A DNA stretch of 64,000 nt. Origin: Tuwongella immobilis. GTDB lineage: Bacteria > Planctomycetota > Planctomycetia > Gemmatales > Gemmataceae. The translations under genes were made by a program, and so were the position numbers. Positions within the stretch are counted from its first letter, which is position 1, and each line of letters begins with the position of its first letter. A model generated the notes under the pieces. That model was not told the DNA's origin and searched no databases. It saw only the letters and a program-made list of their open reading frames with translations. This document shows, piece by piece, positions 16,353 through 20,516 of the stretch. The DNA lies in the NCBI RefSeq assembly GCF_901538355.1, contig NZ_LR593887.1, positions 1,588,920-1,652,919 of the forward strand, in the 5' to 3' direction.

Positions 16353-17552
16353 ATGGCTCGTTCCCGCATGATCTTGCTGGCCAACGAGTTAGGGCACGGG
16401 TTGGGGCATCTGGCCCCTCTGCGCTCGCTCGTCGGCCCATTGCAAACGGCGGGGTACGATGCTCGGATCGCCATTTGGGATATTCATGAGACGGCGGCAC
16501 TGGTGCGAGACACGAATTGCCCAGTGCTGATTGCCCCGCATCTGCCGCGTGCCGAGAATTCGTTGAAGCCCCGCAGCCCGGCCGCGTCATTTGGCGATAT
16601 TCTCTTCGCCAACGGGTACGATTCCGTCACTCGGATTCGTTCCTTGGTGCGAGCGTGGCGGGATCTGCTGATGGTCACGCAGACGGAATTGCTAATTGCC
16701 GATCATGCGCCGACTGCGTGTCTGGTGGCGCGGTGGTGTCTGCCGCAACCCATTCCCATTCTTCAAGTTGGGGTCGGGTTCTGTGTGCCGCCCACGCATC
16801 AGGCGACCTTCCCGCGCTATCTGATTTCGCATCCCGAACAGTCGGATCAATCGCAGATTCTGGCGAATATCTGCGAAGCGATCGGCGAGTGGACCTCGCA
16901 TTTGCCGCCGACCTTGCCCGCCGCGTTTGCCGCCGATTGGGCCATGCCAACGGTTCTGCCGATGCTCGATCCCTACGCGGAATTCCGTGCGGAACCCGCG
17001 CTTGGCCCGCTGATGCCGTTGCCGAAGCCGATGCCGCCGCCGCCCAACGATGCGCGGAGTTTTGTGTACGTGAATGCCGACAATCCGGCGATGGTTGGCG
17101 TGTTGGAGTCCATGTTGCGTGCCGGAATTCCGCTGGAAGGGTATTTCCGAAATCCGGAACCGCAGCGGTTGGCTCGCCTTCGGGAACTGGGCATGCTGGT
17201 TCACGACCAGCCGCAACCGATTCACGAGGCCGTCGCTCGCAGTCGGGTGGTGATCTCGCACGCGAGTACCGGCTTGTCCCAAATCGCGATGGCCATTGGC
17301 CGCCCGACGTTGGGATTCCCCGAGCATTTCGAGCATCTGTTTACCGCGTCGCTGCTGCATCGTCTGGGAGTGGCCCACTATCAATTTCCGCCATTGCAGC
17401 CCAGCGATGCGATTGCCGCGTGGCAAGCCCTGGCGAAATCCCCGCAGCATCAGCACGCCTGTCGCAGTCTGGCGGAGCAGATTGCCCAACGCACCCCAGG
17501 CCACAGTCTGCCGCGACTGCTGAGCGAGGTGGCCCAGCGGCTGCCGGTGTAA
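16353..17552 (+). CDS. GT-B fold glycosyltransferase-like protein
   Basis: 399 residues. The N-terminal glycine-rich start (ILLANELGHGLGHLAPLRSL) and the C-terminal signature region (VVISHASTGLSQIAMAIGRPTLGFPEHFEHLFTA) match UDP-glycosyltransferase (GT1/MGT-like) enzymes, where the latter binds the nucleotide sugar. The His of SHAST and the E/H of PEHFEH are the expected contacts. Start 16353 has GGAAAGG upstream. It lies 30 bp after the surface-protein gene on the same strand, so it may glycosylate that protein or a lipid acceptor; this is inferred from position only. Confidence 0.78.
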   Translation: MARSRMILLANELGHGLGHLAPLRSLVGPLQTAGYDARIAIWDIHETAALVRDTNCPVLIAPHLPRAENSLKPRSPAASFGDILFANGYDSVTRIRSLVRAWRDLLMVTQTELLIADHAPTACLVARWCLPQPIPILQVGVGFCVPPTHQATFPRYLISHPEQSDQSQILANICEAIGEWTSHLPPTLPAAFAADWAMPTVLPMLDPYAEFRAEPALGPLMPLPKPMPPPPNDARSFVYVNADNPAMVGVLESMLRAGIPLEGYFRNPEPQRLARLRELGMLVHDQPQPIHEAVARSRVVISHASTGLSQIAMAIGRPTLGFPEHFEHLFTASLLHRLGVAHYQFPPLQPSDAIAAWQALAKSPQHQHACRSLAEQIAQRTPGHSLPRLLSEVAQRLPV

Positions 17553-17572
17553 AAATTCCCCCCGAAGCGACC

Positions 17573-17601
17573 TTGTCGAGCCTCGAACCAGCCGATATAG
17601 T
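17573..17601 (+). promoter_or_regulatory. Sigma-70-type promoter of tRNA-Ser
   Basis: TTGTCG (17573-17578) and TATAGT (17596-17601) are separated by 17 bases, and the tRNA begins 11 bases after the -10 box. Spacing and position fit a housekeeping promoter. Confidence 0.65.
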
Positions 17602-17611
17602 CATTGCTGTT

Positions 17612-17698
17612 GGAGAGGTGGCAGAGCGGTTGAATGCGTCGGTCTCGAAAACCGATTTATCCGAAAGGATAACGAGGGTTCGAATCCCTCCCTCTCCG
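17612..17698 (+). tRNA. tRNA-Ser (anticodon CGA)
   Basis: Cloverleaf read directly: acceptor GGAGAGG pairs with CCTCTCC (17691-17697), discriminator G at 17698, D-loop GCAGAGCGGTTGAATGC, anticodon stem/loop TCGGT-CTCGAAA-ACCGA with anticodon CGA at 17646-17648, a long class II variable arm (TATCC/GGATA), and T-arm GAGGGTTCGAATCCCTC. It decodes UCG. The terminal CCA is not encoded, since the genome continues CAT. Confidence 0.97.
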
Positions 17699-17743
17699 CA
17701 TGGTGGCCCGTTGGGATCATCCCCAACGGGCTTTTTCGTTGCC
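17694..17743 (+). repeat. Left att-like copy: tRNA-Ser 3' end plus terminator
   Basis: This copy contains CTCCGCA, the terminator hairpin and TTTTTCGTTGCC. It aligns without gaps to 20348-20397. Only about five tRNA bases are included, fewer than in typical tRNA attachment sites. Confidence 0.55.
17706..17736 (+). terminator. Rho-independent terminator of tRNA-Ser
   Basis: GCCCGTTGGG (17706-17715) pairs perfectly with CCCAACGGGC (17722-17731) across a six-base loop and is followed by five T residues. It directly follows the tRNA. Confidence 0.93.
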
Positions 17744-18006
17744 CATTCTTCGACCCACGCCTGGCAGTCGAGTTTGGGCATGCGCCATCTCCATCCGCTG
17801 TTCGCGGCATCCAACTGGTCAAACGGCTTCATCCATCGATTGATGATGCGTTGTACAATTTGCTCCATCCATTCACGCATCCGAAATTCACCGGAACGCT
17901 CGGCAAAAAAAGCAAGCATACGAATTGACGGGCCTGCCGCTTCGAATTATGATCACACGAAGTTTGGTATCGAATGAAACGTGCGGCTGTGAAGGAGGGC
18001 GAGGGG
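17741..18006. other. Gap after the tRNA terminator, no clear gene
   Basis: A minus-strand frame of about 60 codons (17741-17919, ending in a Trp-rich segment) is open here. It has no ribosome-binding site and runs into the antisense of the terminator and tRNA, so it is not called. No other feature is evident. Confidence 0.4.
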
Positions 18007-18494
18007 ATGATCCGCTTTTGCCCGACCCTGTTCACCGCTTCGGATGTGGCCGCGATGCTGGCCTTGCTCAATGCGGCCACACCCTACTTGAACCGCGAGA
18101 TGGGACGGTACTACGTTCAACTATCGGACCTAAATTCTGGCCTGTTCCCAGATCTCTTCGTCGCCGAGTGCGGTGAAGGCGAGGCCTTCGCACGCCAGGC
18201 CGCGGCGGAAGCCGTGATCGCGCTTCCGCATCTTCATGCATATGTAGTCGGCTTGCCGGACGACCTGGATTCCAGTGACGAGTACTGTGTCAGCCATCTG
18301 GACGTGAGCCGTGGGAGATCGACGTTGTCGACATCGGGTCGGTCAACGCACTCTGGCACAACGTCTTCCGCAAGGACAACGCCGGGCGTTGGCGGCCGGT
18401 GGGAGATGATTCGTCGGCCATCGAAGTTTCAGGCAGTTATGCGGGTATCCAAAGTGCCGAACCAGATGCCACAGCAGACGGCGGCGGAGCGTGA
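18007..18494 (+). pseudogene. Unknown gene with an apparent 1-nt frameshift
   Basis: Start 18007 has AAGGAGG eight bases upstream. The first frame encodes a protein-like sequence (MIRFCPTLFTASDVAAMLALL to DDLDSSDEYCVSHLDV, about 100 residues), then turns into Ser/Arg/Thr-rich low-complexity sequence up to a stop at 18507. In another frame, open from 18279, the same DNA reads WEIDVVDIGSVNALWHNVF and RKDNAGRWRPVGDD, which is clearly more protein-like, and stops at 18494. The switch falls between about 18279 and 18312 and equals loss of one base. Either this is a decayed gene or there is a sequencing error. I do not recognise the family. The 3' end overlaps the first 52-bp repeat. Confidence 0.6.
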
Positions 18495-18509
18495 TGTGGG
18501 TTCGTGAGT
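18458..18509. repeat. 52-bp repeat, copy 1
   Basis: It begins CGAACC and ends GGTTCGTGAGT, so the ends are inverted repeats, with an inner CCACA/TGTGG pairing possible. It is 51/52 identical to 19316-19367. The copy overlaps the 3' end of the frameshifted gene and supplies both candidate stop codons. Confidence 0.9.
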
Positions 18510-18572
18510 GTTCAAGCTCACCGATGCTCCGTCAGCAGGTGAGCTGGGTCGCTCGGCGGAGGAGGGCGTGCG

Positions 18573-19304
18573 ATGGGTGCAGGCGTTCAGTTCGACACTT
18601 GGGGTGTGACTCGCTACCCGACTCGTGACGGCCGAGCGCTGGAGGTGTCGGCCGGCGAGGTGCGCGGCGTCATATCGCTCCGGTACGAGTACCGCGATCC
18701 GAACCAACAGCCGACCGACGCGATCGCGTGTGAGTTCCGCACGGCCGACAGTGAGGGCCGACTGTGGGCCGTTACCTCCCGGTTCACCACCCAACTGTTC
18801 GTCACCCACATGTTCGACTTCGCCCAGAATCGGGAGATGGATTTGTTCCGGTTCCCGTCCGAAGGCCGGCGGTTCAAGGACCATTTCAAGAACAACACGC
18901 TGGACCGCTACCGGGTGGCGTTTCGGGATCATCTGCTCTTGGCCGATGCGAGGTACTTCAGTGATGACCGCAGTTACCGGAACCTGGCGGTCGCCGGGCG
19001 GCTGGTCCAAATCAAGTTCAAGTACCTGCACCTGAGCTTTGACGTGGCTGGGAGCGACGAGGATGCCTTTGTGGAGTCGCTTTCGGTGCGGATCGCCAAC
19101 CACTGTTTCTGGGACGAGGAACGAGACTACGCCCTTGGGCCAATGGCGTTCGACATCCAACCGGTTCACTTCCTGCGGCACAACACTGGGGTTTGGGACG
19201 CAGTGTACAACGGCTGGCGGGACAGTCCGTTCCCAATGCCGCTCGTGTTCTCCCCGGTGGAGGGCGAGGGCAAGCCGCAAGGGAACGTGCGGCTGGTGGG
19301 GTGA
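18573..19304 (+). CDS. Unknown protein of accessory patch
   Basis: 243 residues, no family recognised. It has a strong ribosome-binding site (GGAGGAGGG, seven bases before the ATG) and balanced protein-like composition with many aromatics (FDFAQNREMDLFRFPSEGRRF; FKYLHLSFDVAG; HCFWDEERDYALG). No signal peptide or membrane segment is seen, so it is probably cytoplasmic. Codon use (GAC, GAG, AAC, GTC) differs from the genes flanking the patch. The second 52-bp repeat starts 11 bp after its stop codon, which gives a gene-plus-repeat unit like the preceding one. Confidence 0.72.
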   Translation: MGAGVQFDTWGVTRYPTRDGRALEVSAGEVRGVISLRYEYRDPNQQPTDAIACEFRTADSEGRLWAVTSRFTTQLFVTHMFDFAQNREMDLFRFPSEGRRFKDHFKNNTLDRYRVAFRDHLLLADARYFSDDRSYRNLAVAGRLVQIKFKYLHLSFDVAGSDEDAFVESLSVRIANHCFWDEERDYALGPMAFDIQPVHFLRHNTGVWDAVYNGWRDSPFPMPLVFSPVEGEGKPQGNVRLVG

Positions 19305-19315
19305 GGCGGTCGCGA

Positions 19316-19367
19316 CGAACCAGATGCCACAGCAGACGGCGGCCGAGCGTGATGTGGGTTCGTGAGT
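19316..19367. repeat. 52-bp repeat, copy 2
   Basis: One mismatch to copy 1, exactly 858 bp downstream of it. Same CGAACC...GGTTCG terminal inverted repeats. It lies just after the stop of the 18573 gene. Confidence 0.9.
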
Positions 19368-19463
19368 TCTAGGTTCCATGGGCCAGCCGCTGTTCAACTG
19401 AGTGATTCGGCGGCCGAGTGCTCTTTCAACTGGCAGCGCGTCAGCCGTACAAGACGCATCCAC

Positions 19464-19760
19464 ATGGGTGTTCGGGTTGAGATTCGCGACGGCGAGTCTG
19501 TCGAGCAGGCGTTGAAGCGGTTCCGAGAGTTGGTCTGGCGATACGGGCCTCCAGGGGCCGGACGCAAGCGACCGAAGTGGCACAAGCGGCCGCTGGACTA
19601 TCATTTGAAGCCGAGCGAACTGGCCCGCCGCGACGAGCTGCGGGACGCGTGGGTGCAGTACGAGGCCGAGTGCAGTCGTCGCCGGTTAGTCGCGGTCCTG
19701 CGCCGCCAAACCAAGCGGCGCAAGCAGCACTTCGGGGACGCCCCGGTGGTGTACCAGTAG
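19464..19760 (+). CDS. rpsU: bS21-family ribosomal protein homologue
   Basis: 98 residues. The N-terminus MGVRVEIRDGESVEQALKRF matches the bS21 core (V-x-V-R-D-x-E-S-x-x-x-A-L-x-R-F), and the rest is highly basic with KRPLDYHLKPSELARR and a C-terminal RRQTKRRKQHFG. bS21 binds the 30S platform near the anti-Shine-Dalgarno region. It is longer than the usual roughly 70 residues and diverged in the middle (a Gly-Pro-rich insert replaces the usual basic helix). Its place in an accessory patch suggests a second copy rather than the housekeeping gene. Start 19464 is taken because homology begins there. Confidence 0.72.
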   Translation: MGVRVEIRDGESVEQALKRFRELVWRYGPPGAGRKRPKWHKRPLDYHLKPSELARRDELRDAWVQYEAECSRRRLVAVLRRQTKRRKQHFGDAPVVYQ

Positions 19761-19908
19761 CTGCGGCTACTCTCGAGATGCATGAACCAAGCGACGATCC
19801 ACGCGTTTTACTTTCCTGGCGAAGGTTGGGGGCATTCTGGCGTTCATCGCTCCCGTGCCCCCGTCGGGCCGCTGACCGATGGCGCTCTGCGGCAGGAGGG
19901 GTTGCGGA

Positions 19909-20238
19909 ATGTGGATGCCCTTTGACAATGGGGCGACGGTTGGTCAGCCCGGCTACGAGGGGGGCGTCATCGTGCGCGACGAGGAGCACCAAGCCGGCGC
20001 GCGAGCCACGCTGGAGCGGGACTGCAAGCACTGCCCTTGGTCGGTCACCTGCGGAATCTACGGATGGTTCTTCCACACCCGATTCCTCGGGTCGGAGGCG
20101 GAGTCCGAGTTCCCAACCATGTTGGACGGGCTGGCCGCGATCCTCGACATTGGTTCGCGGGTGGATGATCCCGAATGCGACTCACAAATGGAGGCGGTCG
20201 CCAGGGCTATCGAGCAGTTCGTGGGACGCTTCCCGTGA
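19909..20238 (+). CDS. Small conserved-looking hypothetical protein
   Basis: 109 residues. The ATG at 19909 follows CAGGAGGGG with good spacing, which decides it over an upstream start at 19879. The sequence MWMPFDNGATVGQPGYEGG, then VIVRDEEHQAGARATLE and CGIYGWFFHTRF, looks like a compact globular protein; I believe similar hypotheticals exist in other bacteria, but I cannot name the family. Cys residues in CKHCPWSVTC could form a metal or disulfide site. It is the last gene of the accessory patch. Confidence 0.68.
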   Translation: MWMPFDNGATVGQPGYEGGVIVRDEEHQAGARATLERDCKHCPWSVTCGIYGWFFHTRFLGSEAESEFPTMLDGLAAILDIGSRVDDPECDSQMEAVARAIEQFVGRFP

Positions 20239-20347
20239 GCAACTCAGGCATCTGATAGTCCATCCCACGAGATGGAGAGCGATCGCCGAAGTTCAGCGAT
20301 TCAACCCCTCACGCCGGTAATAAAAAGTTTAATCACCGTTTTGTCCA

Positions 20348-20397
20348 CTCCGCAGGGGGGCTCGTTGGGAGCATTGGCAACGAGTTTTTTCGTTGCC
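20348..20397 (+). repeat. Right att-like copy: tRNA-tail/terminator-like sequence
   Basis: It starts CTCCGCA and ends TTTTTTCGTTGCC, and about 41/50 positions match 17694-17743 with no gaps. The rest of the tRNA is not recognisable upstream of it. Confidence 0.55.
20361..20390 (+). terminator. Hairpin plus T-tract at right edge of accessory patch
   Basis: CTCGTTG (20361-20367) pairs with CAACGAG (20378-20384), followed by six T residues. It could terminate the patch genes from the left. Confidence 0.8.
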
Positions 20398-20516
20398 TGC
20401 GCATTCACCCGATCGTATGTCCCACCGCCGCATCGCGGATCATCCTGTCTCGAGTCGGAGCCCGTCGATTGCGGGGGCGTTCGGGTGTGCGTGGGGGGGG
20501 GCTGGGGTGTCGCGGG

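What the first reader, a model, noticed from the sequence alone, without database searches (positions are those of the whole stretch)
18458..19367. Cassette-like 52-bp repeats with inverted-repeat ends at the 3' ends of successive genes
Two copies (18458-18509, 19316-19367) differ at one base, begin CGAACC and end GGTTCG, and each sits at the stop codon of an unrelated unknown gene. Gene-plus-palindromic-repeat units recall integron cassettes (attC), but the ends do not match the canonical RYYYAAC/GTTRRRY cores. The reading frame of the repeat gives tails such as NQMPQQTAAERD. I recall similar NQALHLTAA-type protein tails in planctomycete genomes, which would suggest a dispersed, undescribed recombination or repeat family.
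Basis: partly seen in the sequence, partly recalled or inferred. Interest (0 to 1): 0.75.

Follow-up and report, generated by a model that had tools for sequence, protein, structure and literature searches.

The report
Decayed integron cassettes beside a tRNA
The two repeats are the front halves of worn-out integron recombination sites behind captured genes in a planctomycete chromosome, a gene-capture system known elsewhere that here uses slightly different site ends and seems to have lost its enzyme.

Summary
The repeat pair is real (51 of 52 bases alike) but is only the 5' half of two ~100-bp sites, 18456-18557 and 19314-19411. Aligning 31 other sites of the genome gives integron attC architecture: arms GCCGAAC...GTTCGGC, unpaired spacer, L boxes, two extrahelical bases, covarying stem. 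A covariance model built without the window copies finds just these two in the window (E 1.1e-10, 1.5e-5; next 0.23) and 50 in the genome, 31 of them its own training sites, all in six clusters. Four other clusters have attI-type sites, two have integron-integrase remnants; relatives have full-length integron integrases. The window block is thus a CALIN, a cassette cluster without integrase. Its sites fold no better than shuffles and gene 1 looks frameshifted. Unexplained: the 5' halves are 98% alike, the 3' halves about 59%; and a near-duplicate of the tRNA-Ser end with terminator brackets the block.

The parts
17612..17699 (+). tRNA-Ser (anticodon CGA) upstream of the cassette block
   Evidence: ARAGORN; Rfam tRNA 62.5 bits
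17691..17743 (+). left flanking repeat: last 9 bases of tRNA-Ser plus its terminator hairpin
   Evidence: D6; of 13 hits in the genome only this and 20345-20397 are significant, next best E 0.7
17974..18494 (+). cassette gene 1, apparently frameshifted near 18300-18311; natural C-terminus 18312-18494 (P0003) runs into the site
   Evidence: as-encoded ORF has no Pfam family over cut-off
18456..18557 (+). attC-type site 1 (R'' GCCGAAC 18456-18462; R' decayed to GCTCGGC 18551-18557)
   Evidence: model R1 54.4 bits, E 1.1e-10; weak fold
18458..18509 (+). 52-mer copy 1 = 5' half of site 1
18573..19304 (+). cassette gene 2 (243 aa, no Pfam family)
   Evidence: relatives in 4 of 100 other genomes drawn from the order
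19314..19411 (+). attC-type site 2 (R'' GACGAAC; R' decayed to ATTCGGC)
   Evidence: model R1 32.6 bits, E 1.5e-5; weak fold
19316..19367 (+). 52-mer copy 2 = 5' half of site 2
19362..19760 (+). ORF 3 (132 aa from the first GTG; start uncertain), possible third cassette gene without a detectable site
   Evidence: no site found by R1
19879..20238 (+). ORF 4 (119 aa), relative of genes that sit between two attC-type sites in G008 and G025; no site of its own detected
20345..20397 (+). right flanking repeat, 81% like 17691-17743

Best explanation
The block ~17974-20340 is a small, decayed integron cassette cluster without its own integrase (a CALIN) in a Gemmataceae-type planctomycete chromosome. 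Each 52-mer is the R''-L''-loop half of an attC-type site that follows a captured gene. Shown: site architecture, covariation, clustering with one orientation per array, sites following genes, integron-integrase remnants and attI-type sites elsewhere in the genome, full-length integron integrases in relatives. Inferred: an integron integrase once folded the bottom strand of such sites and moved the cassettes; since then the integrase was lost and the window's sites and gene 1 decayed, so the block is now probably immobile. Also inferred: a short copying event (gene conversion or template switching at the hairpin) made the two 5' halves nearly identical.
For: Model R1, built from 31 sites that exclude the window's two, hits only these two places in the window below E 0.2. 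Covariation: 91.6% of cells paired (81.6 shuffled), covariation score 0.241 against 0.091 shuffled and at most 0.081 slid. Two extrahelical columns: T in 29 of 31, C in 27 of 31. The 50 own-genome hits at E<=0.01 (31 of them training sites, 19 independent) all lie in six clusters, with one orientation per array. A sense ORF ends at the site in 37 of 49 own and 54 of 92 relative sites, against 6% at shifted positions. Integrase remnants: one 0.9 kb before the first site of the 5.817-Mb cluster, one between two sites at 5.361 Mb. Eight attI-type sites in the 429 kb of own sequence held, in four of the five other clusters. Integrases over the cut-off in 6 of 21 genomes; sites in 19 of 21. ORF 4's relatives in 2 of 7 other genomes lie between two such sites. 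Patchy occurrence of the genes: gene 2 in 5 and ORF 4 in 8 of 101 genomes, own included.
Against: The window's own sites fold no better than shuffles (bottom strand z -1.0 and +0.6, against -4.5 to -6.5 for three other sites that I chose). Their R' boxes lack GTT. No integrase match in the window and no significant attI. None of the 50 own sites fits RYYYAAC or GTTRRRY strictly. The number of pairs with a change on both sides (8) does not exceed shuffles (7.0; 99 of 500 reach it). None of the 4 relatives of gene 2, and 5 of the 7 of ORF 4, had a detectable site within the flank held. Antisense ORFs also end at 16 of 49 and 11 of 92 sites.
Confidence: 0.92

Rival explanations
1. The block is a remnant of a tRNA-Ser-targeted genomic island that happened to carry cassettes; the 53-bp repeats on both sides are its attL and attR.
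For: Repeats 17691-17743 and 20345-20397 are 81% alike, have no other significant copy in the genome and bracket the block; the left one contains the tRNA 3' end.
Against: No Pfam family over cut-off among the block's ORFs, so no phage or island gene recognised; 81% is low for att cores; the repeat includes the terminator; the only tRNA found in 12 stretches around the other clusters lies 5.9 kb from its cluster; no empty site could be found, since none of the 18 other family genomes searched has the upstream gene. It concerns how the block arrived, not what the repeats are.
Confidence: 0.25
2. The cassettes were inserted outside an array by an integrase acting in trans on a secondary chromosomal site (attG-type insertion) and are still mobile.
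For: Off-target insertion is one proposed origin of clusters without integrase (passage of PMC8618304), and attG insertion is described (passage of PMC12901181); the genome has integrase remnants.
Against: The sites fold poorly and lack GTT in R'; the genome has no TIGR02249 match over the cut-off; gene 1 looks broken. Past insertion by this route is not excluded; present mobility is what these results speak against.
Confidence: 0.12
3. A simple local duplication of 52 bp between two neighbouring genes, with no recombination system behind it.
For: The 52-mer exists only twice in the genome. The 5' halves are 98% alike while the 3' halves are about 59% alike; of 7 within-genome pairs (among 2544) with 5' halves at least 95% alike it is the only one with unlike 3' halves.
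Against: Both copies match a 103-position model from other places over its full length, and such sites follow genes. A copying event occurred, but between two attC-type sites.
Confidence: 0.04
4. An undescribed repeat or recombination family unrelated to integrons.
For: Cores deviate from RYYYAAC/GTTRRRY at one position in the intact sites.
Against: Integrase identity, attI-type sites, extrahelical bases, unpaired spacer, cassette anatomy.
Confidence: 0.02

Closest known systems
attC sites of chromosomal integrons (Planctomycetes set of PMC8352920; general description in PMC12901181 and PMC11641012)
   Same: R''/R' inverted boxes with AAC/GTT, L boxes, unpaired spacer, extrahelical bases, variable loop, position behind a gene, arrays
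   Different: core GCCGAAC/GTTCGGC, with G/C at the fourth position instead of RYYYAAC/GTTRRRY (0 of 50 own sites fit strictly); the window's two sites are decayed. Whether the published Planctomycetes set has this core could not be checked (supplements not readable here).
[quoted passage not shown] IntegronFinder 2.0, PMC9024848)
   Same: two sites in line, a gene between them, no integrase nearby
   Different: sites degenerate; two further ORFs of the block have no detectable site
Vibrio IntI4 integrase (PDB 2a3v)
   Same: match of the G009 integrase over 314 residues, including the region between the catalytic blocks
   Different: G009 has Gln where 2a3v has Arg at position 135 (my count on the alignment; catalytic role recalled); in the own genome only C-terminal remnants were found
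delta-attI-type cassettes of mobile integrons (PMC12901181, passages)
   Same: attI-type sequence appearing inside cassette arrays
   Different: here whole ~67-bp attI-type sites recur, eight in the own stretches examined

Membership tests
integron attC site | Inverted R''/R' boxes with conserved AAC / GTT | tested here: inconclusive
   Own sites, read at fixed offsets: 38 of 50 have AAC in R'', 34 of 50 GTT in R'; the window sites keep AAC but have GCT and ATT in R'. Met by the family, half met by the window copies.
integron attC site | Strict core consensus RYYYAAC / GTTRRRY (as stated in PMC12901181) | tested here: not met
   0 of 50 own sites; 5 of 103 relative sites for each box. Hence filed as a variant.
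integron attC site | L boxes, unpaired spacer, 2-3 extrahelical bases on one arm | tested here: met
   Alignment of 31 sites, (extrahelical T 29 of 31, C 27 of 31)
integron attC site | Bottom strand folds into a hairpin | tested here: inconclusive
   z -4.5, -6.5, -4.7 for three own sites; -1.0 and +0.6 for the window's two
integron attC site | Sits at the 3' end of a gene | tested here: met
   37 of 49 own, 54 of 92 relatives, control 6%
integron attC site | Recombined by an integron integrase | not testable with these tools
   needs a recombination assay
complete integron | intI gene with attI next to the array | tested here: not met
   No TIGR02249 match in the window, no significant attI; elsewhere in the genome no match over the cut-off
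CALIN | At least two attC sites in a cluster, no integron integrase nearby | tested here: met
   Two sites about 0.75 kb apart, no integrase match in the 64 kb; the sites were found with a custom model, not with IntegronFinder
integron integrase (relatives) | TIGR02249 over cut-off; relation to a solved IntI | tested here: met
   6 of 21 genomes over the cut-off; G009 aligned to 2a3v

The most novel reading that the evidence does not exclude
Gemmatales planctomycetes carry a distinct integron lineage: integrase read towards the array with attI behind it (G009, G016, probably G011, and the remnants in the own genome), core GCCGAAC/GTTCGGC, attI-type sites that recur within arrays, and dispersed integrase-less clusters; the window pair records exchange of half an attC site, that is, copying of one hairpin arm between neighbouring sites, a route of attC change that ordinary R-box crossover would not give.
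Probability: 0.3. Interest if true: 0.5.

Novelty: new variant of a known kind. Interest (0 to 1): 0.33.

Why it matters
It offers an explanation for recurring protein tails and repeats in planctomycete genomes (integron cassettes whose genes run into the site), gives a covariance model for a core variant that a strict RYYYAAC/GTTRRRY search would miss, and shows cassette sites in 19 of 21 genomes searched although 10 of those 19 have no integron-integrase match at E<=1e-30 (most are draft genomes, so some absences may be gaps). The integron as such is well known, so the surprise is moderate.

Tried and rejected
Rfam on 17500-20500 and on four array stretches: nothing fitting the sites. The left end of the block resembles the attI end (ATCGAAT..CGGC), but the score is not above chance (0.115 to 0.7425 of 400 random segments do as well for five attI queries), so I do not claim an attI there. 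No empty insertion site: the upstream gene has no counterpart at E<=1e-10 in the family or order genomes tried; the only two other genomes with a match are of the same class and match at 26-34% identity. Plasmids: no match to the block. Viral contigs: no exact match to a 23-base stretch. NCBIfam was not run on the cassette proteins (one search failed on wrong coordinates and was not repeated). Pfam gives no family over cut-off for ORFs 1-4 (for ORF 1 the as-encoded frame only).

Row selection: of 177 model hits I kept 153 for (50 own, 103 relatives); the 24 dropped are 13 reverse-strand hits of kept sites and 11 weak or end-cut hits. One search evaluated 144 of 153 (the rest touch runs of N), one search used 145 (length filter), one search used 49 own and 92 relative sites. 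itself searched only 21 of the stretches held. Whole-genome model searches score at most 150 of the first-look candidates per genome (26 in the phylum search), so counts are lower bounds. Alignment A1 used 31 hand-picked sites; weaker sites and the window's were left out, and core statistics lean towards the model's own core. Cores were read at fixed offsets, so some weak sites may be out of register.

Papers: passages only of PMC8352920, PMC2426708, PMC3108266, PMC9176274, PMC9024848, PMC8618304, PMC11641012, PMC11023631 (a reference entry) and PMC12901181; listings only for the rest. By title and start of abstract, searches listed no paper on Gemmataceae integron arrays; the library lacks most subscription journals, and supplements could not be read.

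Full report
Observation. The two 52-base repeats are present as described and differ at one base. Their first 28 bases occur only twice in the 6.69-Mb genome with up to 3 mismatches. Weaker BLAST matches, however, led to diverged relatives in clusters elsewhere, and reading those showed that the repeat is the first half of a ~100-bp imperfect palindrome.

What the element is. I aligned 31 such sites from other places of the genome, leaving out the two in the window. Written on the bottom strand, the arms GCCGAAC and GTTCGGC pair; then follows an unpaired stretch of about 6 bases on one side and 5 on the other; then a longer stem (CTCAGCAG... against CTGCTGCAG...) with one extra base at two fixed places on one arm (T in 29 of 31, C in 27 of 31); then a variable loop. 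Stem positions covary: 91.6% of cells paired against 81.6 in shuffles, 68 cells changed on both sides against 33.6, covariation score 0.241 against 0.091 shuffled and at most 0.081 when slid; only the number of pairs with a double change (8 against 7.0) does not exceed the shuffles. This is the layout of integron attC sites: R boxes, L boxes, unpaired central spacer, extrahelical bases and variable terminal structure (passages of PMC11641012 and PMC12901181).

Test on the window. The covariance model from these 31 sites finds two places in the 64-kb window: 18453-18560 (54.4 bits, E 1.1e-10) and 19311-19414 (32.6 bits, E 1.5e-5); the next best of 55 hits up to E 10 is at E 0.23. In the genome it finds 50 places at E<=0.01, of which 31 built the model and 19 are independent, the window's two included; all lie in six clusters: 1.511-1.526 Mb (25, two arrays of opposite direction), the window (2), 4.837-4.838 (2), 5.361-5.364 (5), 5.817-5.826 (13) and 6.166-6.170 Mb (3) (orientations).

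Cassette anatomy. The longest sense ORF ends between 30 bases before and 48 bases after the site start in 37 of 49 own and 54 of 92 relative sites, against 6% at shifted positions in both sets. Antisense ORFs do so at 16 of 49 and 11 of 92, so the signal is not purely strand-specific. In the window, gene 1 reads naturally into the commonest frame, after an apparent frameshift near 18300-18311; gene 2 stops 9 bases before its site.

Recombinase and attI. Searching TIGR02249 in the own genome gives 13 matches at E<=0.001, none over the cut-off and none in the window; all 14 control genomes also give matches at that level, presumably Xer-type recombinases. At E<=1e-30 none of the controls matches. 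The best own match (218 bits) covers only model positions 160-314 and lies 0.9 kb before the first site of the 5.817-Mb cluster; a second remnant, with a stop codon, lies between two sites at 5.361 Mb. Both are followed by the same ~67-bp site ending AATCGAATC/TAAGAGTTCGGC, which I read as attI; eight such copies exist in the 429 kb of own sequence held, in four of the five other clusters; the 6.17-Mb cluster has only short variants. Among 21 genomes, 9 have a TIGR02249 match at E<=1e-30, 6 of them over the cut-off; full-length matches are in G003 (two), G009, G016 and G011, the last with one stop inside. 19 of the 21 have sites at E<=0.01. The G009 integrase matches Vibrio IntI4 (2a3v) over 314 residues.

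Distribution. In 149 genomes drawn from the phylum, 17 (own included) have sites at E<=1e-4 under stricter filters. A strict DNA pattern for intact sites found 54 stretches in the 84,980 species genomes; 48 of 54 bear planctomycete titles, among them Zavarzinella formosa, Limnoglobus roseus, Fimbriiglobus, Gemmata and Isosphaera; L169, L184, L185, L201 and L204 bear titles of other phyla (metagenome bins, not followed up) and L193 is an unclassified bin. The host is of the family of G009, whose contig of 164,171 bases has the length of a Zavarzinella formosa contig, hence Gemmataceae (family placement recalled); Tuwongella immobilis would fit by size (recalled, not verified).

State of the window block. 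As single-stranded DNA the two window sites fold no better than shuffles on the bottom strand (z -1.0 and +0.6; top strand -0.9 and -0.4), while three other sites of the genome, chosen by me, give -4.5 to -6.5. Their R' boxes are GCTCGGC and ATTCGGC. Together with the apparently broken gene 1 and the absence of an integrase match and of a significant attI, this points to a decayed, probably immobile cluster: a CALIN. ORF 4 is 71-73% identical to genes in G008 and G025 that sit between two such sites, so the block probably had at least one more cassette whose site is gone; the other five relatives of ORF 4 and all four of gene 2 have no detectable site within the flank held.

Two things remain unexplained. 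First, the 5' halves of the two sites are 98% alike while the 3' halves are about 59% alike; of seven within-genome pairs with 5' halves at least 95% alike (among 2544 pairs of 145 sites) it is the only one with unlike 3' halves; a milder mirror case, 3' halves identical and 5' halves 80% alike, is the pair at 1.5117 and 6.1700 Mb. Ordinary crossover in the R' box (between its first and second base, passage of PMC12901181) exchanges only the last bases of a site, so I infer a local copying event, for example gene conversion or template switching at the hairpin. Second, the block lies between two 53-bp stretches, 81% alike, that hold the tRNA-Ser 3' end with its terminator and have no other significant copy in the genome. 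This suggests entry through a tRNA-targeted island or a duplication; no empty site was found to test it.

Known versus new. Integrons in Planctomycetes are in print (passages of PMC2426708, PMC8618304; attC sites of Planctomycetes modelled in PMC8352920), and CALINs are a defined class (passages of PMC9024848). The variant part is the core: none of 50 own sites fits RYYYAAC/GTTRRRY strictly, since the fourth base of intact cores is G/C. I could not check whether the published planctomycete set already has this core. I therefore file it as a variant of a known kind, with modest interest.

Noticed in passing
window 17691-17743 and 20345-20397: Near-duplicate (81% over 53 bp) of the tRNA-Ser 3' end plus terminator brackets the cassette block and has no other significant copy in the genome.
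   Followed up: partly
L122 14540-16910 and L123 2420-3000 (G009): Cassettes about 240 bp long without an ORF of 60 aa recur in the array with a shared interior that holds, by eye, an inverted repeat (GGGCGAAAGACAAAGCACTTCGCCC): possibly a repeated non-coding cassette; no Rfam match.
   Followed up: partly
L122 13202-14398, L127 7989-9108, L125 2632-3780, L029 8101-8788: In these the integrase gene or remnant has attI downstream of it, and in L122, L127 and L029 cassettes follow in the same direction; in G003 (L128, L129) integrase and cassettes are divergent.
   Followed up: partly
own genome: 1511418, 1522398, 1526639, 4838778, 5360573, 5361545, 5816721, 5821559: Eight attI-type sites, and four short variants (5823386, 5824475, 6166105, 6168186), stand at the start of or inside cassette clusters: attI may itself have been copied or mobilised.
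   Followed up: partly
L122 13202-14200: The G009 integrase has Gln at the place of Arg135 of 2a3v (my count on the alignment; catalytic role of that Arg recalled), so it may be inactive despite a full-length frame.
   Followed up: no
L169, L184, L185, L201, L204: Strict matches to the planctomycete attC pattern in bins titled Methylomirabilis, Acidobacteria, Betaproteobacteria, Anaerolineae and Bacteroidales: mis-binning or transfer between phyla.
   Followed up: no
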